The notes below the pieces were generated by a model. It was not told where the DNA came from and ran no database searches. It was given only the letters and a program-made list of their open reading frames with translations. A program made the translations under genes and the position numbers. Below are positions 2,001 through 40,746 of a DNA stretch of 64,000 bases, piece by piece. Origin of the DNA: Trichomonas vaginalis G3 (Eukaryota > Parabasalia > Trichomonadida > Trichomonadidae). Each line of letters opens with the position of its first letter. The stretch's first letter is position 1. The DNA lies in the NCBI RefSeq assembly GCF_026262505.1, contig NC_067205.1, positions 17,174,001 to 17,238,000 on the forward strand, read 5' to 3'.

Positions 2001-2116
2001 ATGAATTCAGTTATAGATTCAAACATACATTCGGTCCAATATTGGGTCATGCAGTTAATTCTACATTTTTTTAACTTGTAAGTCATTATTTATGAAAATA
2101 TTTAAAATAGTGTAAT

Positions 2117-2257: not shown

Positions 2258-3151
2258 CAATGTTATATTCTAATTTGAATGTTCCTTTTTAACCTCATGA
2301 TTTCTTCTCACTGATCTGCCTTTTTATGCAGCATTTTGTATTTAATCTCTCTTATCCTTTAGATTCTCTATTCTTTCCATCTTTCTAAACCAGATTCCAT
2401 TGTTAATTCTTAAATTAACACAAATCTTAAATTTCATATTAGTCATTGATCTGAAGTTATTGAAACATCTGACGTCTTTAGATTATCTTATCTAATATTA
2501 AAATGATTGATCTATTTACATTTTTAAAATAGTCCTAAAAAGTCTCAATATTTATAAAAGCATAATAAAATTAAATTTTTTAATATCATTTTGTAAATTA
2601 TTCGTTTACTTTATGGCATAGTCTTGAAAAAGTATCAAAAAACATTATCTTAATGGTCTCTAAAGAGGTTAAGTAGCATACACACAGATATGCTAATGTG
2701 GTAAAAAGAGATTTATTGCAAAAAGTCCAAAATAGTATATTTATTATCAAGATTCGCGTGGAAACGTACGAGTTTGGGACGAATAACTAACATTCTTAAA
2801 CATTTAGTAATACTCTGATAAGTACAAGTCCTTAGATGCGACATATGGCTTCTTTTGTTCTAACTTACCAAATTCAAGAACTCAAGTTGGCAGTAACTCT
2901 GTACTAAACATACTCTAAGAGCTTGTCATTATTCCGTGTATGACAAATCATACTTTAATGTTTTACTCGTTGAATAAAGAATGCTTGATTTTGAAATCGA
3001 ATGTTTTTGCTTAAATAGTTCCAGATTCTTGAACTAGGGACGGAATTAGAGGACACGTCTTTGCTGGTTAGTCGCGTGCTTGATGACAATATGCTACAAT
3101 TATAATAAACGTACAAAAGGGACGAAAATTGAGAGCTTGTAACTTTCAACC

Positions 3152-3529
3152 TTTTGCTAATTGTCGTTAAAAATTAGGCGTAAAGCAAAAATTGATATTT
3201 CATATGGTTTTATGATAGATAAGCATTATATTCCCACTCATTATATTCGTAAATTTTGAGGTTTATCCTTCGCTTTTAAGATCATTGAATTTGATTTTTA
3301 TATAAAATAGTTATATATTAGAAAATAATATGAGTTTATGTGATATTATTTTTCAGAAGATTTTGTGTTCTTCTTCAAAATTTTATTTTTTTATTAAAAA
3401 GAATCTTTACAAAATATACATTTACTTTAATTAATATTTAAAAACGTGCTCTATCAAAAGTTCCAAAAATTCAATATTTTAGCTTTTCTGAGGTGTCACT
3501 TTTGATGAATTTCTGTTTACAACAGAAGA
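3152..3529 (+). repeat. Single arm of the palindromic element at 11.3-12.6 kb
   Basis: This segment is nearly identical to the left arm of the palindrome (11309-11683, reverse orientation) and to most of its right arm (from 12175). It ends with the same terminal sequence, TTTCTGTTTACAACA. It is a solo arm, and its outer end abuts the reading frame of the integrase gene at 3,563. The terminus contains TCACTTTTGATG, which looks like an initiator followed by an ATG (3505), so the arm may provide a promoter for that gene (inference). Confidence 0.8.
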
Positions 3530-3562
3530 TACGGCAAAAACACTTTCAATCGGAAAAGACGT

Positions 3563-4362
3563 TTGAAAAAAATTTTCGTACTACTCGGCTATCCAATCAA
3601 AGAAAGAGGAAGACCAAAGAAAAAAATTTTTGAGGAAGATGTATACAAAATTTGGAAATTAAAGCACAATATGACATTGGATACAAAAGAATCAAAGAAT
3701 CATATTTCGAAAAAGTTGAAAGATTTACTTTCAACGATGCTTTCAAAATTTTCAATCAACAACATTTGTTTACATTTCACAGGCATCAAAAAGTCGATGA
3801 ACATCCACATGAATACGTTGCGCAATATGTTAATCAATTGTGGCATATTGATTTGAAATTTCTGAAGGAAGATAACGGTAACCTTCAATATTTAATTTCA
3901 TTTCTTGATGACAGAAGCAGATATATTATTTGCTGGGATGTTTTCGATACAAAAGAAATGAAAAATACTGCCAGAGTATTTCGTCACGCAATTGATTTAG
4001 TCAAATTAGTTCCACATGGAATTCTCACAGATAATGGAACAGAATTCTTCGGAAAGGATTTTGAAGCGGTTTGTCAAGAATTCAATATAAAACATTTCAA
4101 AACTCATCCGTACACTCCAGAGGAAAATGGAAAAATTGAAAGGAGTTGGAAGACTCTTTTCAAGACAAACCCTGGAGTGAACGCCATTGAGTTCATCCCC
4201 AATGTTGTTTCTCAGTACAATATGGTGTGGAAACACTCCTCATTATTCAAACTCTTTGGGGAGAAATTGACTCCATTTCAGGCCTGGGAAAGGGGCCCAA
4301 ATGGACAAAAGATCTCTGCGCTGACCCAGGCTTCGAAGTTCAAAGAAGAAACTAAAAGATAA
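3563..4362 (+). pseudogene. DDE integrase-type (rve) transposase, frameshifted
   Basis: The main open stretch (3652-4362) encodes a retroviral-integrase-fold transposase core. Visible catalytic motifs, numbered from 3652, are LWHIDLKFL (D67), GILTDNGTEF (D127) and PEENGKIERSW (E163). The D127-E163 spacing is that of a DD35E enzyme. The N-terminal part (a basic GRPKKK region, then an EDVYKIW helix) lies in a different frame from about 3563, so the gene has a frameshift near 3650. The core has no ATG of its own at the left edge. It is probably an inactive copy. It belongs to the same broad rve class as the transposase at 27.0-28.0 kb, but the two are clearly different in sequence. Confidence 0.75.
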
Positions 4363-4521
4363 TTTCAATTTAAAAAAAACGCAGAAAATGAAAAACCAAT
4401 CAAATTTAAAAGTCTCGAATAAACGTTAATTTTATTACTCTACAAGTTTTTCAATAAATGCCTAAGATGGCCGAGAAATGAAATATAAGTATATAAATAT
4501 TAAGGAAAATAGTAAAAGAGT

Positions 4522-4702
4522 CACGATTTGACATACACAGATCGAACATATTTTAAAAACTCTATCATAATCCTTACAAATCACACAAAGTTTAGTTTAA
4601 TAGTTTAGCATCATGACAAAAATATCATCATTTTTACTTAACTTGGCACGATTTGACATACACAGATCGAACATATTTTACAAGCCCTATCATAATCCTT
4701 TC
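4522..4702. repeat. 55-base direct repeat pair downstream of the integrase
   Basis: The sequence starting CACGATTTGACATACACAG occurs at about 4522 and again at 4648, each running about 55 bases with a few differences. It lies just after the integrase gene and may be subterminal DNA of that element. No terminal repeat or target duplication could be identified. The rest of 4,363-4,990 holds no recognised gene. Confidence 0.7.
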
Positions 4703-4990
4703 TAATAATTGTCGAAATAAAAATCGTTTATCAAGAATTACATTAATTTTTTATTGTTTTCAAACTTCTTTTCCTAAATTTTCTTTATTTTAATAAAGTT
4801 CAGTTTTTTATTTTTATTAATTTTTCTTTTCAAATTCAAAATATGTATTCAATTAATTGTGTTATTCGATATATTCAATTGGTTTAAAAATTAGATTAAA
4901 GTTTAATAAATTATCATAATAAAATTTTCGGATTGTTTTTTAGAAAATATGTGTATCGTTTTGAATGATTTTATAATGTGTATATACGAA

Positions 4991-5171
4991 GAATTAGAGG
5001 GTGTGAGATACCATTACATACGATAGTACTCACACCCTCCAATTCCTAGCCAAAATGGCTAAAAATTGGGTGCAATTTTTTACATTGCACCCACTTTTTA
5101 GCCATTTTGGCTGAGAACTACGGTCTGCGAGGTACATAGATAGAATCAGTACCTCGCAGACTATAGTTCTC
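4991..5171. repeat. Array of three abutting hairpins
   Basis: Three near-perfect inverted repeats follow one another with gaps of 2 and 0 bases. Hairpin a, 4991-5045: 17-nt arms, one A/C mismatch. Hairpin b, 5048-5112: 29-nt arms, one T/C mismatch, 7-nt loop. Hairpin c, 5113-5171: 23-nt arms, one C/A mismatch and one G/T pair, 13-nt loop. The three stems are unrelated in sequence. The layout matches the five-hairpin array at 15.3 kb. No reading frame, terminal repeat or target duplication is visible. The function is unknown. Confidence 0.85.
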
Positions 5172-5694
5172 TATATGGCGTCGAAAATTTTAATAGTATA
5201 TTTTTATATCTTATATTATAACACAACAGCAAATCTATATCAACTTAGCCTTAAAACACCAAACTTCTACTTGCATTCTCACTCACAAATGTTAAACACC
5301 CATCTCCAAAAATATAAATTCTTCACAATTTTTTTAAATTGAGAACATATAAACTGTTATCATTCAATAATTTCAGATATTAAATAATAATAAATTTAAA
5401 ACATCATATATTAATGATTTTTTATTAAAAAAATATAATTTTGTTTTCAATTCAAATTTTAATATCTAATAATTTTAATTAGTGTATACCTTACATCATT
5501 ATTCTCCATTTTCCAAATCTGACAAATAAATGTCAAAAATCCTCAAAATAGTGTCACTTTTTGTCAGAAGTGAAGTCACGCTATTTTTCATGCACAACAA
5601 TTTTTATATAATGAAATAAATAAATGTTAAGTATTTGAATACAAAAAAATATTGAAAAATTGAATCAAACCGGAAAAGTTTGGAAAAGAGAAAA

Positions 5695-5768
5695 AGCCAG
5701 TGGCGGGACTCGAATCCGCAACCCCAAGATTAAGAGTCTTATGCTCTATCCGGTTGAGCTACACAGGC
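5695..5768 (-). tRNA. tRNA-Lys (anticodon CTT)
   Basis: The minus strand folds as a tRNA. Acceptor strands are GCCTGTG and CACTGGC with one U-U mismatch. The D stem is GCTC/GAGC. The anticodon arm TAAGA-CTCTTAA-TCTTG carries CTT. The T arm GCGGA-TTCGAGT-CCCGC has one A-C mismatch. A run of five T follows as a polymerase III terminator. No intron is seen. The two mismatches and the unusual T at position 73 leave some chance that it is a pseudogene. Confidence 0.85.
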
Positions 5769-6186
5769 TATTCGAATCTTCAATTTTTTTCGAATATAAA
5801 AAAATAACTAATTGATATTTCAATTGCACTCTCAATTTTATATTTCAATTTTCTGAGTGGTATCGAATTTTAAAAAAAATCTCAAGAACAAAAAAATATT
5901 TTAAATTTTTTCCCTTGTATTTTCATATTACTTTTAAATAAAATTTTCATTGAACATTTTAATCACTTTCAAAAGTTGACAAAAACTCTAAAAACATCTA
6001 TATTATGGAATTTCCATCATGAATGATTAAAATTAATCCTTAATTATATTAATCACGAATTGTCTAATTTAATTTTTTCACAAACTAGCATAATTATTTC
6101 CAATTATTGTTTATAATGGTAAGTTTGTTTATTGCATTTTATTTTATATCAAAATTCAAAAAAAATCGCATATAGAAAGAAATTTA

Positions 6187-7929
6187 TTAAACGTCTAGTG
6201 CAGGATCTTCGTCATCATTTCCACCTCCAAAAATATTATCACTATCATGTACCGCACTTGTACTAAACAACTTGTGATCTTCTGTTGCTATCTCTGGAGG
6301 CTCGTTTGACATTACAACTGTTTCTTCAGCATTATCAAATGAATCATTATTTTCATTACTTTCATTCCTTCCTTTCATCTTGAAAAATATTATCACAACA
6401 ATAATTGCAACAACTACAAGAATGGATATAACAATTACAGGAATCAACCAAGAGTTCTTGCTTCGTGATGGACGTTTCGCTATTTTATCATTTTCTTTGT
6501 TGTCGTCTGATTCTTCAGATATATCTTTATCATTTTCTTTTTTTTCATCTTCTTTAGGTTGTTCTTTTCCATCTTCTTTAGGTTGTTCTTTTTCATCTTC
6601 CTTAGGTTGTTCTTTCTCATCTTCCTTAGGTTGTTCTTTCTCATCTTCTTTTGGTTGTTCTTTGGGAGCTTCAACTAGAAAATCTAATTCTAGATCATTC
6701 TCAGATCTAAATCCATCGTCGTCAATAATATGCATTATTAGCTTGTGTGTTCCTTCTTCAAGAGATGTAAATGGTATTTTTATTGTGAAAGATGCAGCTT
6801 GATTGTTACACTCCTTCTTCTCTGGAATTTCATGATCTTGTCCGTTTTCATCAATCTTGTAATGAATAGTAACACTCTTTTCATCAAAAAGTTCTAAAAC
6901 TAGTTCGATTTCATCACTTGGATTGTATTTTTCTTTTAATTGATTAGAATTTTTGATTGTCGGAAGCTTATTAAGAATAATGTCCTTCTGGATTGAATTT
7001 GATTTATATCCAAAAGCATTCTCAACAACAAATTTGAATTGATACGGTCCTGCTTCTTTGAACTCTAAAGTAAATTTACCAGATTTGATTGATTTTTCCA
7101 TGTTAATTCCTTTCTGAGATCTAATTTTTCCTTTATAGTAATCAAGATAATGGAAGTTCATACTATTAAAGCCATCTTCTGCATAAACTGTCCATGTCAC
7201 TTCATGATTGGAGTTTGGATTATATCTATCAGCTAAAGGTTCATTCAAAAAGATCTTAGGTGGGCTCTTTAAATCTATACCATAACCCAATCTAACTTGT
7301 AACTCTAAAGTCTCACCTGGTTTAATCAATCTGTTCTGCCATGAAAATGAAACAACATTAGCTTGTTTTTCTTCTGGGTTTTCTAAGTTATTCCAATATG
7401 GATAAGTCTTCCAATTTGTATAGGAATAAGAATTTGGACCATACCAAAATGCATCCACTTCTGATGAAGGCTTGTTATTATTTGTAATAAAGTTGAATAC
7501 TAAATTATTCTTTGACTGAACAATCCTATGTCCTTGTCTGAATTGAAAAGGTTTAACAGTAAATGCATCAACATAATTAAGTTTAAGATCTGCAAATGCA
7601 CCTAATGAAAACGTTTTATCAGTATCTCCGTCATTCTTTACTTTAAACTTCAATGTCAAATAATTGGATGTATAAACGGTATCATATTCTGTTTCGATGG
7701 AAATTCCTTCATGGTTTGCTTTGCCATTGTCCTTACCTCTTAAGAGCTGTAATTCTCCATCATTCACCTTGTAAACAAGAAACCAGCCTTTGTTTTTCTC
7801 TGTAGATTCGAACACTGTTCCTGCTTCATCTTTAACCTTGAGATCAAAGTTTGAATTATCGTTGTCTCCTGTCTTTTTGATAACCACCAGTTCGGAGATA
7901 GCTTGATATAAGAAGAAACCAAGCATCAT
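6187..7929 (-). CDS. Type I membrane surface protein with Ig-like ectodomain and Pro/Glu stalk
   Basis: A 580-residue protein. It has a short hydrophobic start, a long Ser/Asn-rich ectodomain with Ig/cadherin-like beta segments, and an acidic stalk with five tandem EQPKEDEK-type octads (about residues 432-472). A single transmembrane segment follows (around SWLIPVIVISILVVVAIIVV), then a short basic stop and an acidic cytoplasmic tail. The tail ends near HKLFSTSAVHDSDNIF, resembling the tail of the paralogue at 8,622-10,451. The ATG is preceded on the minus strand by TTTCATT, a good initiator. The family is not one I can name; it appears to be a trichomonad-specific surface family. An endocytic or trafficking role for the tail is inference. 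Confidence 0.85.
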   Translation of the reverse strand: MMLGFFLYQAISELVVIKKTGDNDNSNFDLKVKDEAGTVFESTEKNKGWFLVYKVNDGELQLLRGKDNGKANHEGISIETEYDTVYTSNYLTLKFKVKNDGDTDKTFSLGAFADLKLNYVDAFTVKPFQFRQGHRIVQSKNNLVFNFITNNNKPSSEVDAFWYGPNSYSYTNWKTYPYWNNLENPEEKQANVVSFSWQNRLIKPGETLELQVRLGYGIDLKSPPKIFLNEPLADRYNPNSNHEVTWTVYAEDGFNSMNFHYLDYYKGKIRSQKGINMEKSIKSGKFTLEFKEAGPYQFKFVVENAFGYKSNSIQKDIILNKLPTIKNSNQLKEKYNPSDEIELVLELFDEKSVTIHYKIDENGQDHEIPEKKECNNQAASFTIKIPFTSLEEGTHKLIMHIIDDDGFRSENDLELDFLVEAPKEQPKEDEKEQPKEDEKEQPKEDEKEQPKEDGKEQPKEDEKKENDKDISEESDDNKENDKIAKRPSRSKNSWLIPVIVISILVVVAIIVVIIFFKMKGRNESNENNDSFDNAEETVVMSNEPPEIATEDHKLFSTSAVHDSDNIFGGGNDDEDPALDV

Positions 7930-8621
7930 AATGAAACTTTTGATAGGAGTCCTACTTTTGAGAGAAAAACGTCAATAATCACAAATTTGATTGCAATTTG
8001 TCAAAAAAAGTTATCTAATATTGTCACAAGATACTATTTGGAATTATATGAAACAAACAAAATTTATAAATGTTTCTGAATTTATAAATTGAATGTTTAA
8101 TCAAAATTTGAATAATGCTAATGGGTTATTTTTATCCATTTGAAGTTGCTTTTATTCATATTCTTCTATAATTGATAATGAATCATATAATTAAGGCAAC
8201 TATAATTTCCCTCAAAATGAAATGAATTTGCAAATTCATATCGTAGCAAACGATTTTTAGAGGAAACTTAGCTTAATGAAATAAGTTCATAAAATTATTA
8301 CAGGTCTTTGTCAAAAATATATCGAACAATTTTTGATGTAAACCTTGTTAAATCTTAACAATTTTATAAGCACTATATATAATTATGAAATGATATTGAG
8401 ATGATTGGACTCGTTTCAATGTGATTGAATGTAAATTACAGGTTTTATTTGTAAAGAATGGTTTTACTCTCAGAAACATATATTTTTATAGTCATTATAT
8501 CAAAATATATGTTATGTTTGTGTTACTAATTATAAAATGCCTATCCAATTTAAATTATCCAAAATTTGAAATTTAATTTTTTAATTTCCGAAAAAAAAAA
8601 TGAAATACAAAAGATAGAAAT
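7930..8621. other. Intergenic spacer between the paralogous surface genes
   Basis: AT-rich DNA holding the promoter of the 6,187-7,929 gene (initiator at 7930-7935) and the 3' end of the upstream paralogue. Nothing else is recognisable. Confidence 0.5.
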
Positions 8622-10451
8622 TTAAGTGTTATCGACATTGTTGTGAAGAATATATAAAAGATGCTCTGTTTTTTGTTCTTCGAAATCATCTTTGAAGATA
8701 TCATCTTCTTCATTTGACAAATTTGTTGAGAATAAAGGATTATCCAGAGTTACTGGCGTTGAATTGCTTGTAACGATTGCAATTGTCTCTTGCATATCAT
8801 CAAACGATGAATCAGTTTGTGAACCTTCATTTTTCTTTTTATGAACAAAGTAAATCAGGCCAATTACTAGAACTATAATTACTATTATAATGCATACAAC
8901 AACTACTGGAATTATCCATGATTTATTGGATTTAGATGGTCTTACTTCATTAGTTCCAATGCCAAGATTTTTATTAGTGTCACTATTTGATGTTAATTCC
9001 GAATTATCTTTTAGAGCTGAATGATTTGATTCCGAACTTTGAATCAGTTTTGATTCCTTATCTTTTTCATCTGGTTTTTGTGCTGGTGTTAGTTCTTTAC
9101 TCGCCTCATTTGGTGATTCATTTGAATCATCAACATTTGATGAAGGTGAAGATGGAATTTTATTTTCTTCCTCAATTGGAACATCTGGCTCTGATTCTTC
9201 AATAAGAGTAAAGTGTTTATCAACTATGCTCTCTGACTTGAATCCATATTCATCTGTAGCATAAATTGTAATGGTATGATTACTGCCTTCTAATGTTTCT
9301 GGTATAGGTATAGTTATAATAAAATCTGTCTCAATATTATTTGTTACCTTTTGTTCAGTAATTGTATAATAACTTTCATCATTGTCAAGTTTATAATGGA
9401 AATGAACAAATGATTCATCCCATACCTTGCCTTGTATAGTAATATTTTCGCCTCTTTTATATGATCCAAGCTCGTTGTCAATTCTAATTGTAGGGAGTTT
9501 TGTCGCATAGATTGTTCTTTCAATAAGATTTGAGGTATAATCGGATGAGTCAACTGCCCAAATCTGAAAATTGTATATTCCATGTTTGAGAGTTTTTGTG
9601 ATTATTGCATATTTATGTTTAAAAGTTTCATTTGTTTTGAAGGAACTATTGAGAGTTTTTTGATTAATGCTATTGTAAACGAACACTGTAACATCATCAT
9701 TGACATCATTATCATAGACAGTAAAGTTGATGCTTAATTTTGTTTCAGGATCATATCTTTCTTGAAGTTCTGTGTTAAGGATAAGCTTTGGTGGAGTCTT
9801 AATGGAAGTTCCTTTTCCGATTGTAAATCCAAATTCGACGGTTTCACCGGCCTTTATAATTCTATTCTGCCATGATAATGCCATCTCAATGTCTCCATGT
9901 ATTTCTTGAGGATTTGAAAGGTTTTCCCAATATGGATTTGTTGTTAGTGTTCTCCTGTTGTTAATATCAGGTGTTCCATACCAAAATGCATCGGCATTTG
10001 TAGAACTGTTTAATCCGTGTGTAAGAACAGAGCAAGATTCACTATTTGACTTAATTGTAAAACCTTGACGGAAATCTAGTGGAATTATGGTACTTTGAGG
10101 AATAAGTAACTGGAGATCTGCATAAATACCCAAAGAAAAGTCAATAGGTTCTTGATTATTGTTGGAAACTGTAAATGAAATGAAAATGAAATCATTATTA
10201 ACGTGATTATTGAGTTTTGCCTCTATTCTTGTATTTTTATAAGAGGATATCTTTTCCTGATCCTTTTTTATGAACTGAGTATTCCCGTTGTTAACCTTGT
10301 AAGCAACAAAGAAGCCTTGAAATTGAGAGGTTATACTAAAAGCTTCATTATTTGAATCAATATAGGCTATATTAAAGCATGCATCTGAATTCTTTGGAGT
10401 TGACTCCTTTAAATAAGATGTTGCAGTCCTTACAAGAAGGTTAAACATCAT
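8622..10451 (-). CDS. Type I membrane surface protein, paralogue of the 6.2-7.9 kb gene
   Basis: A protein of about 609 residues with the same plan as its neighbour. The aligned ectodomain shares motifs such as DAFWYG, NPYWENLSNP/YPYWNNLENP, SWQNRLIKPGET-like and PPKLILN/PPKIFLN. A Ser/Glu/Pro-rich stalk follows, then a transmembrane segment (SWIIPVVVVCIIIVIIVLVI) and an acidic tail containing DNPLFSTN and DDIFKDDFEE. The open frame runs 11 codons further upstream without an ATG, so I place the start at the MM pair (10451), which aligns with the neighbour's MM start. Its stalk lacks the neighbour's EQPKEDEK repeat. The two genes are a tandem duplication on one strand. Confidence 0.85.
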   Translation of the reverse strand: MMFNLLVRTATSYLKESTPKNSDACFNIAYIDSNNEAFSITSQFQGFFVAYKVNNGNTQFIKKDQEKISSYKNTRIEAKLNNHVNNDFIFISFTVSNNNQEPIDFSLGIYADLQLLIPQSTIIPLDFRQGFTIKSNSESCSVLTHGLNSSTNADAFWYGTPDINNRRTLTTNPYWENLSNPQEIHGDIEMALSWQNRIIKAGETVEFGFTIGKGTSIKTPPKLILNTELQERYDPETKLSINFTVYDNDVNDDVTVFVYNSINQKTLNSSFKTNETFKHKYAIITKTLKHGIYNFQIWAVDSSDYTSNLIERTIYATKLPTIRIDNELGSYKRGENITIQGKVWDESFVHFHYKLDNDESYYTITEQKVTNNIETDFIITIPIPETLEGSNHTITIYATDEYGFKSESIVDKHFTLIEESEPDVPIEEENKIPSSPSSNVDDSNESPNEASKELTPAQKPDEKDKESKLIQSSESNHSALKDNSELTSNSDTNKNLGIGTNEVRPSKSNKSWIIPVVVVCIIIVIIVLVIGLIYFVHKKKNEGSQTDSSFDDMQETIAIVTSNSTPVTLDNPLFSTNLSNEEDDIFKDDFEEQKTEHLLYILHNNVDNT

Positions 10452-11308
10452 TCTGAGAATTTGATAAAAATTGATAGAATTCAAATATTTCTTTCAAACT
10501 TTGAATATGAATTGTCAAAATTTATCACCGTGTAATGTTGTCATTTTTAGATATAAGAATGATATTATACATAAAACTTTTAAAAGAAATATTACATTCA
10601 CAAAATTGAGTGGACGACTTAAAATATAATCAATTCTATTAGATATGGAGTCTGTGTCAAAATTCTAAATACATTTGTCTGTCTTTTTAAAATTTTTCCC
10701 ACGAGTAAATGATTTGTAAAATTTTTATGTATAAAATGTAAATGTAATCAAATAAATGGTGTAAAATATTCATCCCCCATTTATCAATGGCTATATCTTG
10801 ACATCATTTTGGGTACAAATAATCTGAAATTGGAGAAGTGAAATTCTGAGTTGATAATTTATGGGCTTTTTCAAATTCAGTTGAGTAATGGTCATGGTTA
10901 TACATACCATTACTATTTTGAGCATGACTGAATAAGAAATCCATTTTTTTGGAGATAATTCTCACAAATTTGATTTAGTTATAAATCCTTAAAAGGGGAA
11001 CCTTAAACATTGAGGGTATAATGAAATCAAACTAATAAACTCGAATTGCGAAAAATTGAATAACTAATTTGATCAAATTCAAAAATTATAACATCGATTT
11101 GTTTGCTCGTTGGTGGGTACTTGTAATGTGAAACATTTAATCCGGAATGAAATTAAAAATAATTTTGATTTTGAGTTAACGCAATTTAAACAGTTCGTAC
11201 TTATTAGATATGATTATGCGATAATGCATGCAATGTTTATTATTTAAAATCCAATGAACTAAGAAATTGCAATATTCAGTAATTGTGACTGAATTTTTAA
11301 ATACCCTG

Positions 11309-12559
11309 TGTTGTAAACAGAAATTCATCAAAAGTGACACCTCAGAAAAGCTAAAATATTGAATTTTTGGAACTTTTGATAGAGCACGTTTTTAAATATT
11401 AATTAAAGTAAATGTATATTTTGTAAAGATTCTTTTTAATAAAAAAATAAAATTTTGAAGAAGAACACAAAATCTTCTGAAAAATAATATCACATAAACT
11501 CATATTATTTTCTAATATATAACTATTTTATATAAAAATCAAATTCAATGATCTTAAAAGCGAAGGATAAACCTCAAAATTTACGAATATAATGAGTGGG
11601 AATATAATGCTTATCTATCATAAAACCATATGAAATATCAATTTTTGCTTTACGCCTAATTTTTGACGACAATTAGCAAAAAATGTTAAATGTTAACACT
11701 CAGTCCATTTGAATATGAAAAATAAAATTGACTTTGATTAAATGTTTTTATTTATCATGCAATCTTCTTGCGACCAAAGATTTGAATAAAAGTTCAAAAA
11801 ATAAGATAGCTTAAAAATAATATACGGTAGTGTTTACTAATAGATGAATAGTATATAAATTCTATTAAAATGGATTTGATCCAAAAAAATATAAAACCAA
11901 AAATAATTGTTATAATTTAAATGAAGAAGTAATTTAAAACGATTTTATTTATGATCAAATTTTATATATTTTTTTGGATCAAATTCATTTTAATAGAATT
12001 TATATACTATTCATCTATTAGTAAACACTACCGTATATTATTTTTTAAGCTATCTTATTTTTTGAACTTTTATTCAAATCTTTGGTCGCAAGAAGAATTG
12101 CATGAAATAAAAACATTTAATCAAAGTCAATTTTATTTTTCATATTCAAATGGACTGAGTGTTAACATTTAACATTTTTTGCTAATTGTCGTCAAAAATT
12201 AGGCGTAAAGCAAAAATTGATATTTCATATGGTTTTATGATAGATAAGCATTATATTCCCACTCATTATATTCGTAAATTTTGAGGTTTATCCTTCGCTT
12301 TTAAGATCATTGAATTTGATTTTTATATAAAATAGTTATATATTAGAAAATAATATGAGTTTATGTGATATTATTTTTCAGAAGATTTCATTCTATATGC
12401 CTATGAAAAGTACTCTCAAAACTAACTTTTTCCTAATTATAATTAAATCTAGAATATTGTATTATGCTTAGTATTATTTCATTTTTCTCATTCAATTTAG
12501 AATTTACAAATGTCAAAAAATTGAGAGCTGTCACTTTTGATGAATTTCTGTTTATTACA
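11309..12559. mobile_element. Giant palindromic non-autonomous element
   Basis: The element starts TGTTGTAAACAGAAATTC and ends with the inverse (GAATTTCTGTTTATTACA). The two halves are inverted copies meeting near 11,935. The right arm carries a divergent stretch at about 12,386-12,530. No protein longer than about 70 codons is present, and the longest frame simply spans the palindrome centre. A solo arm sits at 3152-3529 next to an integrase gene, which suggests that such a transposase may have mobilised it (inference). No convincing target duplication is seen. Confidence 0.8.
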
Positions 12560-12700
12560 GAACGAACCAAAAATTTCATTAGAAAACTTTTCATTTTTGA
12601 ACGATCAACTATAAAATGACTTCTTGTAGTTTAATATGTGAAATTCTCAAGCGAACAAAGAATTATCAATCTATTGAAAAAAAATTCAATTCATTCTTCC

Positions 12701-13972
12701 ATGACCCGTTTTGCAGGAGGACTTGAATGCATACACTTGTACCAAAACAGCTTTTTACAGATGGCTTTATCAGTATCTGATAGAAAGTATATTCATCCAT
12801 TGATTGAGCAGATTCAACAAAGATGTCTTGGATTAAGAGTCAAAGCTAAGGAATTTGAGTTAATCAGCGGACAAAAAACGCCAGAACTGATTTCAATTCC
12901 ATTATCCATTACATATTTAAAGGAAGCTACAACCTGGATGAAAGAATACCATGGATTAAATAGTCAGATGTCTTTAGGATCGATCGGATTCAATGATAAC
13001 CTCATTGTCTTAAATCTTTGCCATAATATGTGCGATGGTAGATTTATGGCTAATCTAGCTTCTGAATTGAGTGATGAAAACGCTGTAAACATTCGCCCAA
13101 TAGAAGGATGCCCAATTGAGCCATCAACATACTTCACCAAGGAAGTTAGCCTTAATAACAAGGAATGCAAAGTCTGCGGCAATGATCCACAGATTGCAAG
13201 ATATATTACTAAAGGAGTAGGCAAAATAGCGCCAAAATATACTGAATCATACTGGTACAGATTCCCAATGAAGGAACTTGCTTGCTTCAATAGCAAAACA
13301 CAAACAGCTACAAAGTTATTGGAGCATCAAATTGCTGCTGTTTCCTTAGCAGCTGCTTCAATGAATAGTGATAAGGAGTACTACAATATGGGCGCATCGT
13401 GTCCTGTTGATATTAGAAGATTTACTCCTTCGACTCCATATGAACCTCTCAAGTCCATCGATTCCGAAATCGTTAAGAAATACTCATTCGCTAACTTTGT
13501 TGCTTCCGTTTCCGCTTATACAAAAGCAAAACCAAGCGAAACAATTAGAGATATCCTTCCAAGAATCAGAGAATGCATGAATGACAAGATTAAGTCTGGC
13601 GAACAGTTCAAGTTCTTATATACAATGCAAAAAGTTGTCGAAGCCGGTGGAGTTCAAGGAGAATTCCCAGATGGCGCTGGTATTGAAGTTTCATCCATTG
13701 GATCGATCAAAGTTGGAGGCAGAATCAAAGATTACTTATTCAGCCATGTTATCAATGGCGAAGAATCTTCAAAGTCTATCGAATTTGTTACTTATTCTTT
13801 GAAGACACCAACAAACTACGACTTCTCTGGATATCTTAACTACATGCCAGGAGATGCTACAGTTGAAGAAGCTGGAAAACTCTTGAAATGCTTCGAATTT
13901 TCATTAAAGCATGTCGAAGACAACACTACAGTTGGCGATGCCATTAAGTTGATCCGTAAGGAAGTCTTATAA
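12701..13972 (+). CDS. HxxxDG acyltransferase-like protein (condensation/alcohol acyltransferase fold)
   Basis: The motif LCHNMCDGRF fits the HxxxDG catalytic signature of CoA-dependent acyltransferases and condensation domains (BAHD, alcohol acetyltransferase, NRPS C-domain superfamily). A C-terminal part with NPAG/DFGWG-type function is less clear. The first in-frame ATG is 12701. However, coding-like sequence in the same frame (FSSEQRIINLLKK) begins near 12641, just after a stop. An ATG at 12616, preceded by a TCATTTTTG initiator, is in another frame, so a one-base frameshift near the start is likely. The length from 12638 would be 444 residues, normal for the superfamily. Substrate and pathway cannot be told from the sequence. 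Confidence 0.75.
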   Translation: MTRFAGGLECIHLYQNSFLQMALSVSDRKYIHPLIEQIQQRCLGLRVKAKEFELISGQKTPELISIPLSITYLKEATTWMKEYHGLNSQMSLGSIGFNDNLIVLNLCHNMCDGRFMANLASELSDENAVNIRPIEGCPIEPSTYFTKEVSLNNKECKVCGNDPQIARYITKGVGKIAPKYTESYWYRFPMKELACFNSKTQTATKLLEHQIAAVSLAAASMNSDKEYYNMGASCPVDIRRFTPSTPYEPLKSIDSEIVKKYSFANFVASVSAYTKAKPSETIRDILPRIRECMNDKIKSGEQFKFLYTMQKVVEAGGVQGEFPDGAGIEVSSIGSIKVGGRIKDYLFSHVINGEESSKSIEFVTYSLKTPTNYDFSGYLNYMPGDATVEEAGKLLKCFEFSLKHVEDNTTVGDAIKLIRKEVL

Positions 13973-15315
13973 AGAATTTTCTTTCTCATTATATCTGAAT
14001 AAAAAACACAATTTCTTTCTAAATACGATTGAATGGCATAATATGTCCAAATACTCTATTTACTTTGCTTTCCTACATCAACATATGGTAAAAATGATAT
14101 TATTAAAATTATAGAATTTAATAATCCCATTTTTGATCACATTTCTCATGAATATCGAAATTATATAAAAAATCAAATATAATAGCTTATCTTATTTTTT
14201 CCAAAGAAAATTAGAAAGTGAAAAAATCATTATTAAAAACTAAGATTTGAAATTCATTTTTTATTTTTTGAAAAAATTTTGGAAATAAATCGCAAAATGG
14301 TCAAGCTTAATTATAATCAATATTCCTTAAAAGATCGATATACATGAAAATTATCAAAATCATAAGAATTTTCCAAATCAAAAACGTTGATTACGATGAT
14401 TTGGATCTTGAATACTAAAATACTATATACTTTTGTCCGAAACAGAAACTTTGGGGTAGCGAATATTTTATGTATTCAGCCTCCTATTCTTTGATTTCTC
14501 ACAGTTGGGTATATAGGCATTTCAGTTTTAATAATTTAATCAGATAGGTGTTTGCATTGTATTATTCCATATATCTTCGGTTTATACATTACTTTTTTTG
14601 TTATCGATAATTCTTCAAAGAAATTCGGAAATAATTGCTGAATTAGCACATCCATATCATAATTATCATTTCATTAACACCAATCAAAATCCCGATAATG
14701 AAATTTTTCTCGAGACATTTCAGAAAAGCGTACTCTTCATTAAATGAGTTGGAAATAATGCATACAGTGCGGTCGATACAATAATCAAAAAATGATTGGT
14801 CTCTATGATTAATTTATGATTTTTCATGATTTTTAATGTTATTCTCGTACGAATATTTGCATTCTAATCCGAACTGAATTCATATCGAAAACATGCTTTC
14901 AGAATATTTTTACGTACTTCAGTCATAAGGGCGAAATAGCTCTCAAAACTGTATTTACGTTTTAAGATTGTCTTTAATTGGGCACAAATTATATATTAAA
15001 ACACATATTAAAACTTTAAGTTCCAATCAATTCTCACAATTCTTTTTCAATCATTATAAATTTTTTAAATTCTTATTTAGAATAGCATATGCACTACATA
15101 TCTTGTTGCATGCTAAGATCAGTCATAATGTAAACCTCTCAATTTTATTGTCGTGGGAAGTATCTCAATTCCTTCAAAAAAATTGAAAAACTATTTAATT
15201 TTAAAAATATAATACTTTTAATTAGTTAATTAATTGGAGATATTTTTAAAAAATCACTTTTGATAATACTTTTGAGAACTTTAATTCAAAAAATATATTC
15301 AAAAATATCCAGGAT
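13973..15315. other. Gene-poor AT-rich stretch
   Basis: No gene, RNA or repeat was recognised here. A 72-codon frame at 14,968-15,186 has the low-complexity composition of random AT-rich DNA. Confidence 0.5.
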
Positions 15316-15640
15316 ATCAAGAGGGAATTGTTCCTTATGAGGTATATAGTTATGATGTATACCTCATAAGGAACAATTCCCTCCTTAAAACGAGAAAACT
15401 TGTTCGAAATTGTTTATCATTTCGAACAAGTTTTCTCGTTTTTAATAAGAAACTAAAGGCTATGAGGCACTGATTATATATTAGTGCCTCACAGCCTTTA
15501 GTTTCTAATAGATAGCTGGGAAACTTTCTCCAAATGATAAGTTATTCAGAGAAAGTTTCCCAGCTATCAAGAGGGAATTGTTCCTTATGAGGTATATAGT
15601 TATGATGTATACCTCATAAGGAACAATTCCCTCCTTAAAA
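15316..15640. repeat. Array of five back-to-back perfect hairpins
   Basis: Five inverted repeats follow with gaps of 2-5 bases. H1 15321-15383 (26-bp stem). H2 15387-15442 (24 bp, 8-nt loop). H3 15448-15506 (24-nt arms, one A/C mismatch). H4 15511-15568 (20 bp, 18-nt loop). H5 15571-15633 is identical to H1. The segment 15316-15390 recurs at 15566-15640, so the array is a 250-base unit H1-H2-H3-H4 plus the start of a second unit. Stem sequences differ among H1-H4. There is no reading frame. The near perfection of four unrelated stems argues for recent origin or selection. Function is unknown. Confidence 0.9.
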
Positions 15641-16268
15641 TCGTAGACATTTTTATACTTATTAATTAACCATTCAAAATCATATTCCTCTGAAAAGTTA
15701 TTTTATTAAAAATTTAGAATTTTAATAAATATAGAGTTTGAATTTCATACAATACCTATATATTTTCAATAATGGAATTTGAAAACCATTCTCAAAAGTT
15801 CTCAGAAAACCTTTTTTTCATTAATTTTAAGAAATCTGAGTATTAAATTAAGTGATAAATTCGTTTGACACTACTTTAATTTTTAAATTCAAAAAATTAT
15901 ATGTGCTTCTTAAAATGACTCAAAAAAATTTTATTATAAAATAATATATAATATTAAAAATCACACAACATTTTTTTACTTTACATAATCGTACTTCCTC
16001 GACGATTAATTTCCACTCAATTTCTATCGTTGACCGAACTTAGCATGCAACAATCTAAATTTTTTACAATTCAATGAGTATTTATGTTTTTAAAACATGC
16101 AAGCAAATCGTGTTCTTATTCTAATTTTCAAAAAATAAGATGTAAGAAATATTGTTTAAAATAATCAATTGAGAAGGGAGCTTCTCAATCATTCACAAAA
16201 ATTCAAAATTTCAATTATTGAATGAGATTGAATGACTCTCACAATCATAAAAAAATTATTATTAGAAG

Positions 16269-16733
16269 ATGTCTGCAATTAGAAGTACACAGATGATTAA
16301 ACCATTCAGATGCGTCAATGCTCCAAAGAACAAATTCTCCGCAGCTGAAGATGAAATGCTCAGGAACCTTGTTAGGAAGTATGGCGAAAATGAATGGGAT
16401 TTAATCTCGCAAGTTCTAGGTACTAAGAATTCCAGACAATGTCATGATCGATGGGTATATAACTTATCACCAAAAGTTAACAAAAAGCCTTTTACTGAAG
16501 AAGAAGATCAGAAGTTATTGGACTTAGTAGAAAATCTAGGTCCACACTGGGTTCAAATATCTAAAAGAATGCCGGGTAGAACAGATACACAGATTAAGAA
16601 TCGTTACAAAGTACTCAAGAGACGAGTTAATTCCATAATTAAAAATATTAAATTTGATTTATTCCCACGATATATAATGTATTTTCAATTTTTAGACTCC
16701 TTTAAATTGAATATAATTATGCCTAAATTTTAG
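16269..16733 (+). CDS. Myb-like DNA-binding protein (two SANT/Myb repeats)
   Basis: A 154-residue protein. Repeat 1 covers about residues 20-68 (KNKFSAAEDEML, W43, SRQCHDRW with W62). Repeat 2 covers about 72-119 (PFTEEEDQKLL, W94, GRTDTQIKNRYK). The first tryptophan of each repeat is Phe, as often seen in divergent Myb repeats. Short R2R3 Myb proteins of this size regulate transcription in T. vaginalis through Myb-recognition elements next to the initiator (known for Myb1-3). The last 35 residues are AT-rich, hydrophobic read-out with no domain, so the C-terminus may be altered. TCACAAT and TCATAAA lie upstream as possible initiators. Confidence 0.9.
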   Translation: MSAIRSTQMIKPFRCVNAPKNKFSAAEDEMLRNLVRKYGENEWDLISQVLGTKNSRQCHDRWVYNLSPKVNKKPFTEEEDQKLLDLVENLGPHWVQISKRMPGRTDTQIKNRYKVLKRRVNSIIKNIKFDLFPRYIMYFQFLDSFKLNIIMPKF

Positions 16734-18130: not shown

Positions 18131-19880
18131 GAATGTGATTGCAAAAGTTTGACCGACAAGAGTGTAATATGCACTCTTGTCGGTCACAATGTGTCATTCC
18201 GGGAGACATTGCCACTGCATGTCCCCCAGATTGGCACACTGTTCCGCATTCATAACTTGAACGCGGAACTTTGACCGACAAGAGTGTAATATGCACTCTT
18301 GTCGGTCACAATGTGTCATTCCGGGAGACATTGCCACTGCATGTCCCCCAGAATGAGACAATTTGTTGCAATCAGAATGTGCTTGCAAAAGTTTGACCGA
18401 CAAGAGTGTAATATGCACTCTTGTCGGTCACAATGTGTCATTCCGGGACATTGCCACTGCATGTCTCCCAGAATGAGACAATTTGTTGCAATCAGAATGT
18501 GCTTGCAAAAGTTTGACCGACAAGAGTGTAATATGCACTCTTGTTTTAATAAATTTTAATTACCATATAAGTATCTTTACATACAATCTTTACATTATAA
18601 TTTTTCCTAATTAATATTTATTTCATATTTTTTTGTGCTTAATCTAACTTATAGCATGTACTGAACTATTTTACAGACTCTACTGAGCTATCTCAACATA
18701 TAAACCAGTGAAAAAAAAACACATATATACTCACTTCATATTCTGATCTCATGCCATATTATCGCAAAAACTATATTTATACACCACACCTCATAAAACA
18801 TCATTTTAGCCCTATCGAAGCGTTCAAAACCTATTTTTCCCGCGTAATCTGATTCTTCAGGATCCGCTGATTCGATTTCTGCCGTCAGATCGCGAAAATA
18901 TGCATTACATAACAAGATATACACAAATTACTAAACTTAATATTTTCCTTAAAATTGCAATTCCTCCATATGACAATATTTATTATCTTCTCCGTTTTCC
19001 CTAACAAATATATTTAATTTTCTGAGTAATACGTATAATAAAATGAATTTCTCAAAAAATCAAATTCAAAATTAATAATGGATAATGACTAGATATAATC
19101 TGAACTTTTGAATGCATACATTTTTTGAAAAAATTGGATTTTGAAAATTATGTTGTTGTGTATGAACTTCAAGAGAAATTTTAAGGAAAATATTAAGTTT
19201 AGTAATTTGTGTATATCTTGTTATGTAATGCATATTTTCGCGATCTGACGGCAGAAATCGAATCAGCGGATCCTGAAGAATCAGATTACGCGGGAAAAAT
19301 AGGTTTTGAACGCTTAGATAGGGCTAAAATGATGTTTTATATGAGGTGTGGTGTATAAATATAGTTTTTGCGATAATATGGCATGAGATCAGAATATGAA
19401 GTGAGTATATATGTGTTTTTTTTCACTGGTTTATATGTTGAGATAGCTCAGTAGAGTCTGTAAAATAGTTCAGTACATGCTATAAGTTAGATTAAGCACA
19501 AAAAAATATGAAATAAATATTAATTAGGAAAAATTATAATGTAAAGATTGTATGTAAAGATACTTATATGGTAATTAAAATTTATTAAAACAAGAGTGCA
19601 TATTACACTCTTGTCGGTCAAACTTTTGCAAGCACATTCTGATTGCAACAAATTGTCTCATTCTGGGAGACATGCAGTGGCAATGTCTCCCGGAATGACA
19701 CATTGTGACCGACAAGAGTGCATATTACACTCTTGTCGGTCAAACTTTTGCAAGCACATTCTGATTGCAACAAATTGTCTCATTCTGGGGGACATGCAGT
19801 GGCAATGTCTCCCGGAATGACACATTGTGACCGACAAGAGTGCATATTACACTCTTGTCGGTCAAAGTTCCGCTATCTGA
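18131..19880. mobile_element. Nested palindromic element built of hairpin repeats
   Basis: The inner arms (about 18545-18955 and 19188-19596) are near-identical inverted copies around a spacer of about 230 bases. Outside them lie about 121-base direct repeats, four on the left and three on the right, mirror images of each other. Each repeat contains a 37-base hairpin (arm TGACCGACAAGAGTG, 7-nt loop), at 18150, 18272, 18394, 18514 (cut) and, inverted, at about 19591 (cut), 19707 and 19828. Between hairpins is GC-richer DNA. No transposase is present, and no target duplication was found. It is probably a foldback-type element. Confidence 0.8.
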
Positions 19881-28001: not shown

Positions 28002-28189
28002 TCTAATGAAGTACGTTAACAATCAAAATATTCTATAAGTGTCTAGTATGGAATTCAAAAGAATAAAGAAAATGGTAACGTAAATAAACGTATTATGAAA
28101 TAATTTATAATTAAAATGAAAAAAAAAGGAAAAATAATAAGTAAAGTGACTGGAAATGAAAATTAAAATCAGTGTACAGTTTTATTTTT

Positions 28190-30945
28190 TTCTCGCTGTG
28201 AAACGTATTCGGTCATTTTTTTAAAAATTAATTTTTTGTTAGAGATAAGAGCTAAAACTCGGTAAACAACTTCTTTATGTCTAGAAAATTCTATCTTGCC
28301 TTTTATTTTTTTCTCGCTGTGAAACGTATTCGGTCATTTTTTAAAAATTAATTTTTTGTTAGAGATAAGAGCTAAAACTCGGTAAACAACTTCTTTATGT
28401 CTAGAAAATTCTATCTTGCCTTTTATTTTTTTCTCGCTGTGAAACGTATTCGGTCATTTTTTTAAAAATTAATTTTTTGTTAGAGATAAGAGCTAAAACT
28501 CGGTAAACAACTTCTTTATGTCTAGAAAATTCTATCTTGCCTTTTATTTTTTTCTCGCTGTGAAACGTATTCGGTCATTTTTTTAAAAATTAATTTTTTG
28601 TTAGAGATAAGAGCTAAAACTCGGTAAACAACTTCTTTATGTCTAGAAAATTCTATCTTGCCTTTTATTTTTTTCTCGCTGTGAAACGTATTCGGTCATT
28701 TTTTTAAAAATTAATTTTTTGTTAGAGATAAGAGCTAAAACTCGGTAAACAACTTCTTTATGTCTAGAAAATTCTATCTTGCCTTTTATTTTTTTCTCGC
28801 TGTGAAACGTATTCGGTCATTTTTTTAAAAATTAATTTTTTGTTAGAGATAAGAGCTAAAACTCGGTAAACAACTTCTTTATGTCTAGAAAATTCTATCT
28901 TGCCTTTTATTTTTTTCTCGCTGTGAAACGTATTCGGTCATTTTTTTAAAATTAATTTTTTGTTAGAGATAAGAGCTAAAACTCGGTAAACAACTTCTTT
29001 ATGTCTAGAAAATTCTATCTTGCCTTTTATTTTTTCTCGCTGTGAAACGTATTCGGTCATTTTTTTAAAAATTAATTTTTGTTAGAGATAAGAGCTAAAA
29101 CTCGGTAAACAACTTCTTTATGTCTAGAAAATTCTATCTTGCCTTTTATTTTTTTCTCGCTGTGAAACGTATTCGGTCATTTTTTTAAAAATTAATTTTT
29201 TGTTAGAGATAAGAGCTAAAACTCGGTAAACAACTTCTTTATGTCTAGAAAATTCTATCTTGCCTTTTATTTTTTTCTCGCTGTGAAACGTATTCGGTCA
29301 TTTTTTTAAAAATTAATTTTTTGTTAGAGATAAGAGCTAAAACTCGGTAAACAACTTCTTTATGTCTAGAAAATTCTATCTTGCCTTTTATTTTTTTCTC
29401 GCTGTGAAACGTATTCGGTCTTTTTTTTAAAAATTAATTTTTTGTTAGAGATAAGAGCTAAAACTCGGTAAACAACTTCTTTATGTCTAGAAAATTCTAT
29501 CTTGCCTTTTATTTTTTTCTCGCTGTGAAACGTATTCGGTCATTTTTTTAAAAATTAATTTTTTGTTAGAGATAAGAGCTAAAACTCGGTAAACAACTTC
29601 TTTATGTCTAGAAAATTCTATCTTGCCTTTTATTTTTTTCTCGCTGTGAAACGTATTCGGTCATTTTTTTAAAAATTAATTTTTTGTTAGAGATAAGAGC
29701 TAAAACTCGGTAAACAACTTCTTTATGTCTAGAAAATTCTATCTTGCCTTTTATTTTTTTCTCGCTGTGAAACGTATTCGGTCATTTTTTTAAAAATTAA
29801 TTTTTTGTTAGAGATAAGAGCTAAAACTCGGTAAACAACTTCTTTATGTCTAGAAAATTCTATCTTGCCTTTTATTTTTTTCTCGCTGTGAAACGTATTC
29901 GGTCATTTTTTTAAAAATTAATTTTTTGTTAGAGATAAGAGCTAAAACTCGGTAAACAACTTCTTTATGTCTAGAAAATTCTATCTTGCCTTTTATTTTT
30001 TTCTCGCTGTGAAACGTATTCGGTCATTTTTTTAAAAATTAATTTTTTGTTAGAGATAAGAGCTAAAACTCGGTAAACAACTTCTTTATGTCTAGAAAAT
30101 TCTATCTTGCCTTTTATTTTTTTCTCGCTGTGAAACGTATTCGGTCATTTTTTTAAAAATTAATTTTTTTGTTAGAGATAAGAGCTAAAACTCGGTAAAC
30201 AACTTCTTTATGTCTAGAAAATTCTATCTTGCCTTTTATTTTTTTCTCGCTGTGAAACGTATTCGGTCATTTTTTTAAAAATTAATTTTTTTTAGAGATA
30301 AGAGCTAAAACTCGGTAAACAACTTCTTTATGTCTAGAAAATTCTATCTTGCCTTTTATTTTTTTCTCGCTGTGAAACGTATTCGGTCATTTTTTTAAAA
30401 ATTAATTTTTTGTTAGAGATAAGAGCTAAAACTCGGTAAACAACTTCTTTATGTCTAGAAAATTCTATCTTGCCTTTTATTTTTTTCTCGCTGTGAAACG
30501 TATTCGGTCATTTTTTTAAAAATTAATTTTTTGTTAGAGATAAGAGCTAAAACTCGGTAAACAACTTCTTTATGTCTAGAAAATTCTATCTTGCCTTTTA
30601 TTTTTTTCTCGCTGTGAAACGTATTCGGTCTTTTTTTTAAAAATTAATTTTTTGTTAGAGATAAGAGCTAAAACTCGGTAAACAACTTCTTTATGTCTAG
30701 AAAATTCTATCTTGCCTTTTATTTTTTTCTCGCTGTGAAACGTATTCGGTCGTTTTTTTAAAAATTAATTTTTTGTTAGAGATAAGAGCTAAAACTCGGT
30801 AAACAACTTCTTTATGTCTAGAAAATTCTATCTTGCCTTTTATTTTTTTCTCGCTGTGAAACGTTTTCGGTCATTTTTTTTAAAATTAATTTTTTGTTAG
30901 AGATAAGAGCTAAAACTTTGCAGACAACTCCCCCATGTCTAGCAA
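28190..30945 (-). repeat. 121-base tandem repeat, right array (23 copies)
   Basis: Twenty-three head-to-tail copies, each marked by CTCGCTGTGAAACG, in inverted orientation to the left array. Copies are almost identical, differing in T-run lengths and rare substitutions. The last copy has the same variant text as the left array's first copy (CAGACAACTCCCCCATG), which anchors the array to the inverted arm. Confidence 0.95.
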
Positions 30946-37745: not shown

Positions 37746-37755
37746 TAAAAAATGA
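37746..37755 (-). promoter_or_regulatory. Initiator of the MULE transposase
   Basis: Minus-strand TCATTTTTTA lies directly before the ATG at 37745, placing transcription start about 8 bases upstream of it. Confidence 0.7.
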
Positions 37756-37800
37756 AATGATGCAAAATTTACGAAAACCGTTCGAAAATTGAATCAAAAA

Positions 37801-40697: not shown

Positions 40698-40746
40698 CAA
40701 ATTTCACAAATATAATTTACTATACAATTTTATTCATTTTTTTAAA

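What the first reader, a model, noticed from the sequence alone, without database searches (positions are those of the whole stretch)
15316..15640. Tight array of five near-perfect hairpins
H1-H5 fill 15321-15633 with only 2-5 bases between them. Stems are 20-26 bp with 8-18-nt loops, and only H3 carries a mismatch. H1-H4 have unrelated stem sequences; H5 repeats H1 exactly, giving a 250-base period. No open frame, terminal repeat or target duplication explains it. Possible readings are small-RNA precursors (Argonaute- and Dicer-like proteins are reported in T. vaginalis), a mobile palindrome family, or a structured RNA. All are inference.
Basis: partly seen in the sequence, partly recalled or inferred. 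Interest (0 to 1): 0.85.

Follow-up and report, generated by a model that had tools for sequence, protein, structure and literature searches.

The report
Evenly spaced hairpins inside jumping genes
The five hairpins are the inner part of a small jumping gene present in hundreds of copies; related jumping genes in the same genome carry the same kind of hairpin row at an almost constant 62.5-base spacing, which suggests that the row may matter for how these elements spread.

Summary
The array is real: five hairpins, dyad centres exactly 62.5 bp apart, DNA-fold z -29.7, none in 20 shuffled windows. The array is the interior of a 949-bp element (15104-16052) with TGTTGCATGC..GCATGCAACA terminal inverted repeats and 4-bp duplication ATCT; 658 end-like sites suggest about 330 copies in a 180.9-Mb genome. 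Related arrays lie 3' of IS481-type transposase genes: the window holds a second case (relic 3652-4362, array 4991-5171), and of six transposase loci fetched without knowing of an array there, four had one. Termini and 4/15-bp duplications match IS481EU, a parabasalid transposon superfamily; the passages seen of its paper do not mention hairpins. Hairpins alternate between two classes; stems diverge by paired changes while pitch stays near 62.5 bp; mismatches show no G.T excess, which argues against an RNA-folding constraint. Inferred mechanism: a symmetry- and spacing-constrained DNA element, six helical turns per dyad, acting in cis in transposition or copying. Neutral palindrome upkeep and RNA roles remain open. 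New variant of a known kind.

The parts
15104..16052 (+). Non-autonomous IS481EU-like DNA transposon, 949 bp (called F1 here)
   Evidence: In 20 of 20 fetched loci the match around the array ends at 15098-15104 (15160 in L015) and 16052-16065, split in two in L011, L019 and L023; ends and duplication
15100..15103 (.). Left target site duplication ATCT
16053..16056 (.). Right target site duplication ATCT
15104..15125 (+). Left terminal inverted repeat TGTTGCATGCTAAGATCAGTCA
   Evidence: 326 forward + 332 reverse sites genome-wide at up to 3 mismatches, control 0
16031..16052 (-). Right terminal inverted repeat (TGACCGAACTTAGCATGCAACA on the + strand)
15321..15383 (.). H1, class A (type A2), 26-bp stem, dyad centre 15352
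15387..15442 (.). H2, class B (type B' by its place in the cycle; by similarity alone it scored as B), 24-bp stem, dyad centre 15414.5
15448..15506 (.). H3, class A (type A1), 24-bp stem with one mismatch, dyad centre 15477
15511..15568 (.). H4, class B (type B), 20-bp stem, dyad centre 15539.5
15571..15633 (.). H5, exact copy of H1, dyad centre 15602
3652..4362 (+). Relic of an IS481-type DDE transposase (open frame of 236 aa) upstream of a second hairpin array
   Evidence: NCBIfam NF033577 110.9 bits, below its cut-off of 224; Pfam rve 1.7e-17; found again by the genome search at C3:17177652
4991..5171 (.). Second hairpin array in the window, A-B-A (4991-5045, 5048-5112, 5113-5171), dyad pitch 62 bp
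5562..5599 (-). Right end of that second IS481EU-like element (..CGCTATTTTTCATGCACAACA); its left end and a duplication were not found

Best explanation
What it is (shown): the interior of a 949-bp non-autonomous DNA transposon of IS481EU type. Rows of dyad-symmetric hairpins recur in the IS481EU-like transposons of this genome. In transposase-bearing elements they lie 3' of the transposase gene, between it and the right terminal repeat; non-autonomous derivatives lack the gene and keep the row. Each row is a lattice of two alternating hairpin classes at about 62.5 bp per dyad (A+B = 125 bp; A1-B-A2-B' = 250 bp). How it works (inferred): stem sequence drifts by paired changes while symmetry and pitch stay, and mismatches show no RNA-type wobble bias, so the row most likely acts as DNA. 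It would be a set of palindromes six helical turns apart (62.5/6 = 10.4 bp per turn), so that dyads face one side and could bind a symmetric protein, or extrude hairpins, in register. Its likely job is in cis, for mobilisation: assembling transposase or a host factor on the element, or stalling forks or pairing ends during copying. The even spacing itself is most simply the fossil of an ancestral tandem array of a palindromic 125-bp unit, which must have a second dyad halfway. My odds: identity about 0.93; DNA-level function in cis about 0.5.
For: Element: matches end at the TIRs in 20 of 20 loci. Exact 4-bp duplication in 22 of 25 distinct element rows (29 rows, 4 of them the same elements on the other strand; two L011 rows share one right end; L015 gave no row); mispaired flanks 22 of 812. 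In an array-blind sample of 20 exact-TIR sites 16 had both ends and 16 of 16 an exact duplication. IS481EU link: TGT..ACA or TGT..ATA termini, duplications of 4 bp (F1) and 15 bp (L031, L034, L060), as described for IS481EU (PMC10045372, passages). Of six transposase loci fetched without knowing of an array (L056, L057, L059, L060, L061, L142), four had one. At 63 transposase loci an array hit lies within 2 kb downstream at 12 and upstream at 0 (lower bound). Pitch: 76 of 82 spacings within 1.5 bp of a multiple of 62.5, 41 exactly 62.5, about 4 expected (related arrays are not independent). Covariation in 37 hairpins of four types: Watson-Crick 0.89-0.94 against 0.56-0.69 with arms swapped between members; pairwise compensated differences 863, one-sided 426. 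F5 and F2 arrays are 86-88% identical over 145 bp while the transposase DNA aligns at 68% over 265 bp. No G.T excess. In 13 array-blind copies 23 of 26 variant pair states are one-sided and the 3 two-sided ones all sit in one copy, L042: no sign of routine correction in place. 80 prokaryotic IS481-relative loci: 0 arrays.
Against: No functional data. In the array-blind young copies stems do not vary less than flanks (0.016 against 0.003 and 0.007 variant cells per site). Three of 16 complete copies carry one hairpin only, exactly 250 bp less, and still have duplications, so a long row is dispensable or was lost after insertion. L056 and L057 showed no array of their own in the short downstream stretches held. 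The row of L059 is inverted relative to L058 and one loop is inverted between L059 and L060, so any function must tolerate orientation. No autonomous element with F1's own terminal repeat was found. The transposases score below the IS481 model's cut-off (best 128.7 of 224 bits; 0 of 63 over it). Of six elements tested for 15-bp duplications three had none (L059, L035, window). Similar arrays in different families could reflect exchange. Helical phasing follows from the lattice model and is no independent proof.
Confidence: 0.55

Rival explanations
1. Neutral palindrome upkeep: the row has no function. It began as a tandem array of a palindromic unit inside an IS481EU ancestor; stems stay symmetric because replication template switching or gene conversion between arms and between arrays copies changes from one arm to the other, and the row rides along with the transposon.
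For: Arrays expand and contract by whole 250-bp units: 1, 5 or 9 hairpins in F1, 87 in L031. Loop and row inversions show active recombination. Copy L042 carries several compensated changes at once, as arm copying or conversion from another array would give. Stems in young copies are no less variable than flanks. The constant pitch follows from a palindromic tandem unit without any helical constraint.
Against: In 13 young copies 23 of 26 variant pair states are one-sided, so correction in place is not routine. The row sits at the same place, 3' of the transposase, in different families and is kept in non-autonomous elements that lost the gene. Pitch drifts by no more than 1-2 bp in most arrays although indels occur in young flanks. 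Array DNA is better conserved than transposase DNA between F5 and F2.
Confidence: 0.28
2. RNA-level role: the row is transcribed, as 3' UTR of the transposase or as a non-coding RNA, and its hairpins act as small-RNA precursors, as a decoy against silencing, or as RNA-stability elements.
For: Strong RNA folding (z -27.0). The place 3' of the transposase gene suits a 3' UTR.
Against: No G.T excess over A.C among stem mismatches (19 to 21; isolated 11 to 19). Row orientation relative to the transposase is not fixed. No Rfam match. That paper reports a piRNA-like class with about equal strand coverage of repeats and does not mention these arrays in the passages seen. A fixed centre-to-centre pitch is not expected of RNA hairpins.
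Confidence: 0.15
3. Assembly artefact or chance palindromes.
For: None found.
Against: Identical arrays at dozens of sites on six large contigs with different flanks and site-specific duplications; 0 such hairpins in 20 shuffled windows.
Confidence: 0.01

Closest known systems
IS481EU (probably including 'Banshee') DNA transposons of parabasalids (Kojima & Bao 2023, PMC10045372)
   Same: TNT..AYA termini, short TIRs, 4- and 15-bp target duplications, IS481-like DDE transposase in the related autonomous elements, parabasalid-type host.
   Different: Main-text term searches show 0 mentions of hairpin, palindrome or tandem, whereas here rows of phased hairpins recur in several families. Whether F1 equals one of the paper's seven non-autonomous families could not be checked, because its supplementary sequences were out of reach.
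MITEs and other short non-autonomous DNA transposons
   Same: Short, TIR-bounded, non-coding, high copy number, probably mobilised in trans.
   Different: 949 bp with an internal ordered row of five hairpins shared with transposase-bearing relatives; hairpin count varies in whole 250-bp units.
Bacterial REP/BIME palindrome clusters (recalled, not tested)
   Same: Ordered palindromes of limited types in alternating order.
   Different: Here inside a eukaryotic transposon at constant pitch, next to a DDE transposase.
Integron attC arrays (recalled, not tested)
   Same: Rows of hairpin-forming DNA whose structure is kept while sequence varies.
   Different: No cassettes between hairpins were seen; here the enzyme next to the row is an IS481-type DDE transposase.

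Membership tests
IS481EU superfamily (F1 element with the array) | Terminal signature TNT..AYA | tested here: met
   TGT..ACA at 15104/16052 and in the copies
IS481EU superfamily (F1 element with the array) | TIRs mostly under 50 bp | tested here: met
   22-bp imperfect TIR, outer 14 bp perfect
IS481EU superfamily (F1 element with the array) | Target duplications near 4, 15 or 25 bp | tested here: met
   4 bp in 22 of 25 distinct rows and 16 of 16 complete array-blind copies
IS481EU superfamily (F1 element with the array) | IS481-like DDE transposase, or an autonomous partner with the same ends | tested here: inconclusive
   F1 has no gene; no partner with the same TIR was found. The link is through homologous arrays and similar ends in elements that carry such a gene
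IS481EU superfamily (elements L059, L060) | IS481-like DDE transposase | tested here: met
   Best two of 63 matches to NF033577 (127.6 and 128.7 bits, below the 224-bit cut-off); D..D..E core conserved. L060's frame has one internal stop
IS481EU superfamily (elements L059, L060) | Identity with a published IS481EU consensus | not testable with these tools
   Supplementary sequences of PMC10045372 were out of reach (0 look-ups allowed)
Ginger1 | TIRs of about 40-270 bp and CCGG/CCGT duplications (recalled from the paper's abstract; only a search listing was seen here) | tested here: not met
   22-bp TIR; AT-rich varied 4-bp duplications
Polinton/Maverick | 6-bp duplications (value as given in the passages of PMC10045372) | tested here: not met
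   4-bp duplications
miRNA or small-RNA precursor | Small RNAs mapping to the stems | not testable with these tools
   No read data on hand
Known structured RNA (Rfam) | Match at the gathering score | tested here: not met
   0 matches in L061, L059, L036; only a tRNA at 5695-5768 in window 2600-16600

The most novel reading that the evidence does not exclude
IS481EU transposons carry a shape-recognised cis element: a helically phased row of palindromes, one dyad per six turns, whose sequence is free to drift as long as symmetry and pitch are kept, and which a transposase or host factor reads as hairpins or cruciforms. Non-autonomous elements succeed by keeping this row and the ends while discarding the gene.
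Probability: 0.3. Interest if true: 0.88.

Novelty: new variant of a known kind. Interest (0 to 1): 0.66.

Why it matters
A transposon module that keeps symmetry and spacing but not sequence would be an unusual kind of cis signal, and would give a test bed for whether palindromic DNA in eukaryotes can be read by structure. It also offers a practical marker: hairpin rows at 62.5-bp pitch pointed to IS481EU-like elements, including ones that lack the transposase gene. Hundreds of near-identical F1 copies, with rows of 1, 5 or 9 hairpins among those read, form a natural series for separating selection from mutational upkeep of palindromes.

Tried and rejected
Autonomous partner of F1 with the same terminal repeat: two facing-TIR pairs (C2:6928128/6932140 and C3:4674087/4679817) proved to be two separate F1 copies each. 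An rve-like open frame between the C2 pair belongs to a large family with many copies in roughly 9-kb-spaced clusters on contig C4, probably Maverick integrase (inference), and not to F1. Transposases next to F1 in L056 and L057 lie outside, or overlap only the edge of, an inserted F1 copy.

Stem against flank rates in the first 20 copies were discarded, since those copies had been picked by their match to the array; the array-blind sample replaced them and pointed the other way (stems more variable, cells counted per copy). Whether the one-hairpin (700-bp) copies form a mobile subfamily: unclear; they share one rare site and otherwise resemble different long copies. Class by centre parity failed for F2 and was replaced by similarity and order. 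Co-location control: shifts of the transposase positions gave downstream counts of 1, 7, 0, 0, 1 and 0, and one upstream hit at one shift; the 7 (-20 kb) falls in the tandem cluster on C2 whose copies recur every 4.9 kb, so that cluster inflates both count and control. Prokaryotic relatives: 153 found, the best 80 kept and scanned, 18 hairpins in 374,538 bases, 0 rows. Literature on the arrays: searches listed no paper that names them in title or the abstract start shown; subscription journals and the supplements of PMC10045372 were not seen.

Full report
Observation. They are far beyond chance: 0 such hairpins in 20 shuffled windows, fold z -29.7 as DNA and -27.0 as RNA. Their dyad centres are 15352, 15414.5, 15477, 15539.5 and 15602, exactly 62.5 bp apart.

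What carries it. A genome search with the array found 82 matches (41 places on each strand reading), with only 40 of 579 candidate stretches scored. In 20 fetched 10-kb loci the match around the array ends at 15098-15104 (15160 in L015) and 16052-16065, with the match split in L011, L019 and L023; four loci also matched other parts of the 11-kb query. These limits are terminal inverted repeats TGTTGCATGCTAAGATCAGTCA / TGACCGAACTTAGCATGCAACA. A 4-bp target duplication is exact in 22 of 25 distinct rows (29 rows, 4 of them the same elements on the other strand; L015 gave none); mispaired flanks agree in 22 of 812. End-like 22-mers number 326 + 332 in the 180.85-Mb genome, reversed-pattern control 0. 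Both ends match within 3 mismatches, so this suggests about 330 elements (inference). H1-like arms number 720 + 712, control 0.

Array-blind sample. Taking 20 exact-end sites in list order on contig C1: 16 have both ends and 16 of 16 an exact duplication; 13 are about 950 bp (five hairpins in 12, four detected in L039) and 3 are about 700 bp with one hairpin, the gap being exactly 250 bp (15362-15611). Of the four without a second end in the stretch, L040, L045 and L050 show hairpins and L053 none. L019 has nine hairpins. Variant cells per site are 0.016 in stems, 0.010 in loops, 0.003 and 0.007 in flanks, and 0 in the TIRs; shared variants count once per copy. Of 26 variant pair states 3 are two-sided, all in copy L042.

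Link to a transposase. The window holds a second row, A-B-A at 4991-5171, 629 bp after an open frame (3652-4362) that matches IS481 transposases (110.9 bits, cut-off 224) and the integrase core rve (1.7e-17). A genome search with the IS481 model gave 63 scored matches, none over the cut-off, best 128.7 bits. Six of these loci were fetched without knowing of an array there. L059 and L060 (the two best scores) have an A and a B hairpin about 435 bp after the gene. The stretch downstream of C2:10384201 (L061) has B'-A1-B-A2-B'-A1 with near-perfect stems, and that downstream of C4:17023970 (L142) has A1-B-A2. L056 and L057, fetched because F1 lies beside them, showed no row of their own in the short stretches held. 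L058 was chosen because an array was already known there. Against 120 array places from three searches, 12 of 63 transposase loci have a row within 2 kb downstream and 0 upstream; position shifts gave 0-1, except 7 in a tandem cluster. F1's TGT..ACA ends and 4-bp duplications, and the 15-bp duplications of L031, L034 and L060 (none found in L059, L035 and the window relic), fit IS481EU, described from parabasalids with TNT..AYA ends and 4-, 15- or about 25-bp duplications (PMC10045372, abstract and passages). Term searches of its main text gave 0 for hairpin, palindrom and tandem.

Architecture. In 13 regions that I chose as arrays (L031 and L019 left out), 76 of 82 successive dyad spacings lie within 1.5 bp of a multiple of 62.5 and 41 equal it, against about 4 expected; several regions are close relatives, so they are not independent. 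L031 holds 87 dyads. By similarity the dyads alternate between class A and class B wherever neighbours are 61.5-67.5 bp apart, in the order A1-B-A2-B', with the finer B types partly set by position. A tandem array of a palindromic 125-bp unit must have a second dyad halfway, so alternation and even pitch follow from one ancestral event (inference).

Covariation. In 37 hairpins of four types, stems are 0.89-0.94 Watson-Crick, against 0.56-0.69 when arms are swapped between members; pairwise differences are compensated 863 times and one-sided 426 times (pairs are not independent). Mismatches are G.T 19, A.C 21, other 34, and isolated ones G.T 11, A.C 19, other 14 among 65 unique hairpins. A hairpin kept for RNA folding should favour G.U. 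Between F5 and F2 the arrays are 86-88% identical over 145 bp, the best match being inverted, while transposase DNA aligns at 68% over 265 bp and the proteins are 41% identical. Of 153 prokaryotic relatives of the transposase, the 80 kept have no such row.

Mechanism. Shown: a transposon component with conserved symmetry and pitch and drifting sequence, placed 3' of the transposase in the loci where gene and row were both seen, and kept in elements without the gene. Inferred: a DNA-level cis element read by symmetry or shape, phased at six turns. Against: stems of young copies are not constrained, one-hairpin copies exist, orientation varies, and no assay exists. Neutral upkeep by arm copying (0.28) and RNA roles (0.15) remain. 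I keep 0.55 for the best reading as a whole.

Novelty. The element fits a known superfamily; the phased hairpin rows were in none of the titles, abstract starts or passages I saw. I therefore call it a new variant of a known kind.

Noticed in passing
window 3152-3531 and 11302-11681: A 380-bp, 99% inverted repeat encloses 7.8 kb that includes the second IS481EU relic; the same sequence occurs in L029 and begins just before the relic's transposase frame, so the relic may be cut by another element.
   Followed up: no
window 28061-31053 and 37622-40755: Two long tandem arrays, period about 121 bp (23 copies) and 167 bp (17-18 copies), the first next to a 628-bp perfect inverted repeat (25546-26173/30874-31501).
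   Followed up: no
window 18150-19864: A different hairpin family (TGACCGACAAGAGTG..CACTCTTGTCGGTCA) repeated at 122-bp spacing within large inverted repeats.
   Followed up: no
window 1-2081: 24-bp periodic repeats with higher-order blocks and several open frames.
   Followed up: no
window 35493-37745 (- strand): MULE transposase domain protein of 750 aa (PF10551, 7.9e-12).
   Followed up: no
window 54683-55861: Open frame with phage-tail-repeat and Gp10 C-terminal domains in a higher-GC stretch.
   Followed up: no
L026 1119-1689 and 5727-6295: An F1 copy sits in the middle of a mirror-symmetric set of other, longer hairpins.
   Followed up: no
L031 264-6678: A 6.4-kb element with a 15-bp duplication and 87 hairpin dyads, mostly a 250-bp tandem array.
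   Followed up: partly
G000 contig C2, 10.38-10.42 and 11.06-11.09 Mb: IS481-like transposases with hairpin rows recur every roughly 4.6-4.9 kb, as a tandem amplification.
   Followed up: no
G000 contig C4, 8.28-8.60 and 20.77-21.34 Mb: Large clusters of a near-identical integrase-like frame at roughly 9-kb spacing.
   Followed up: no
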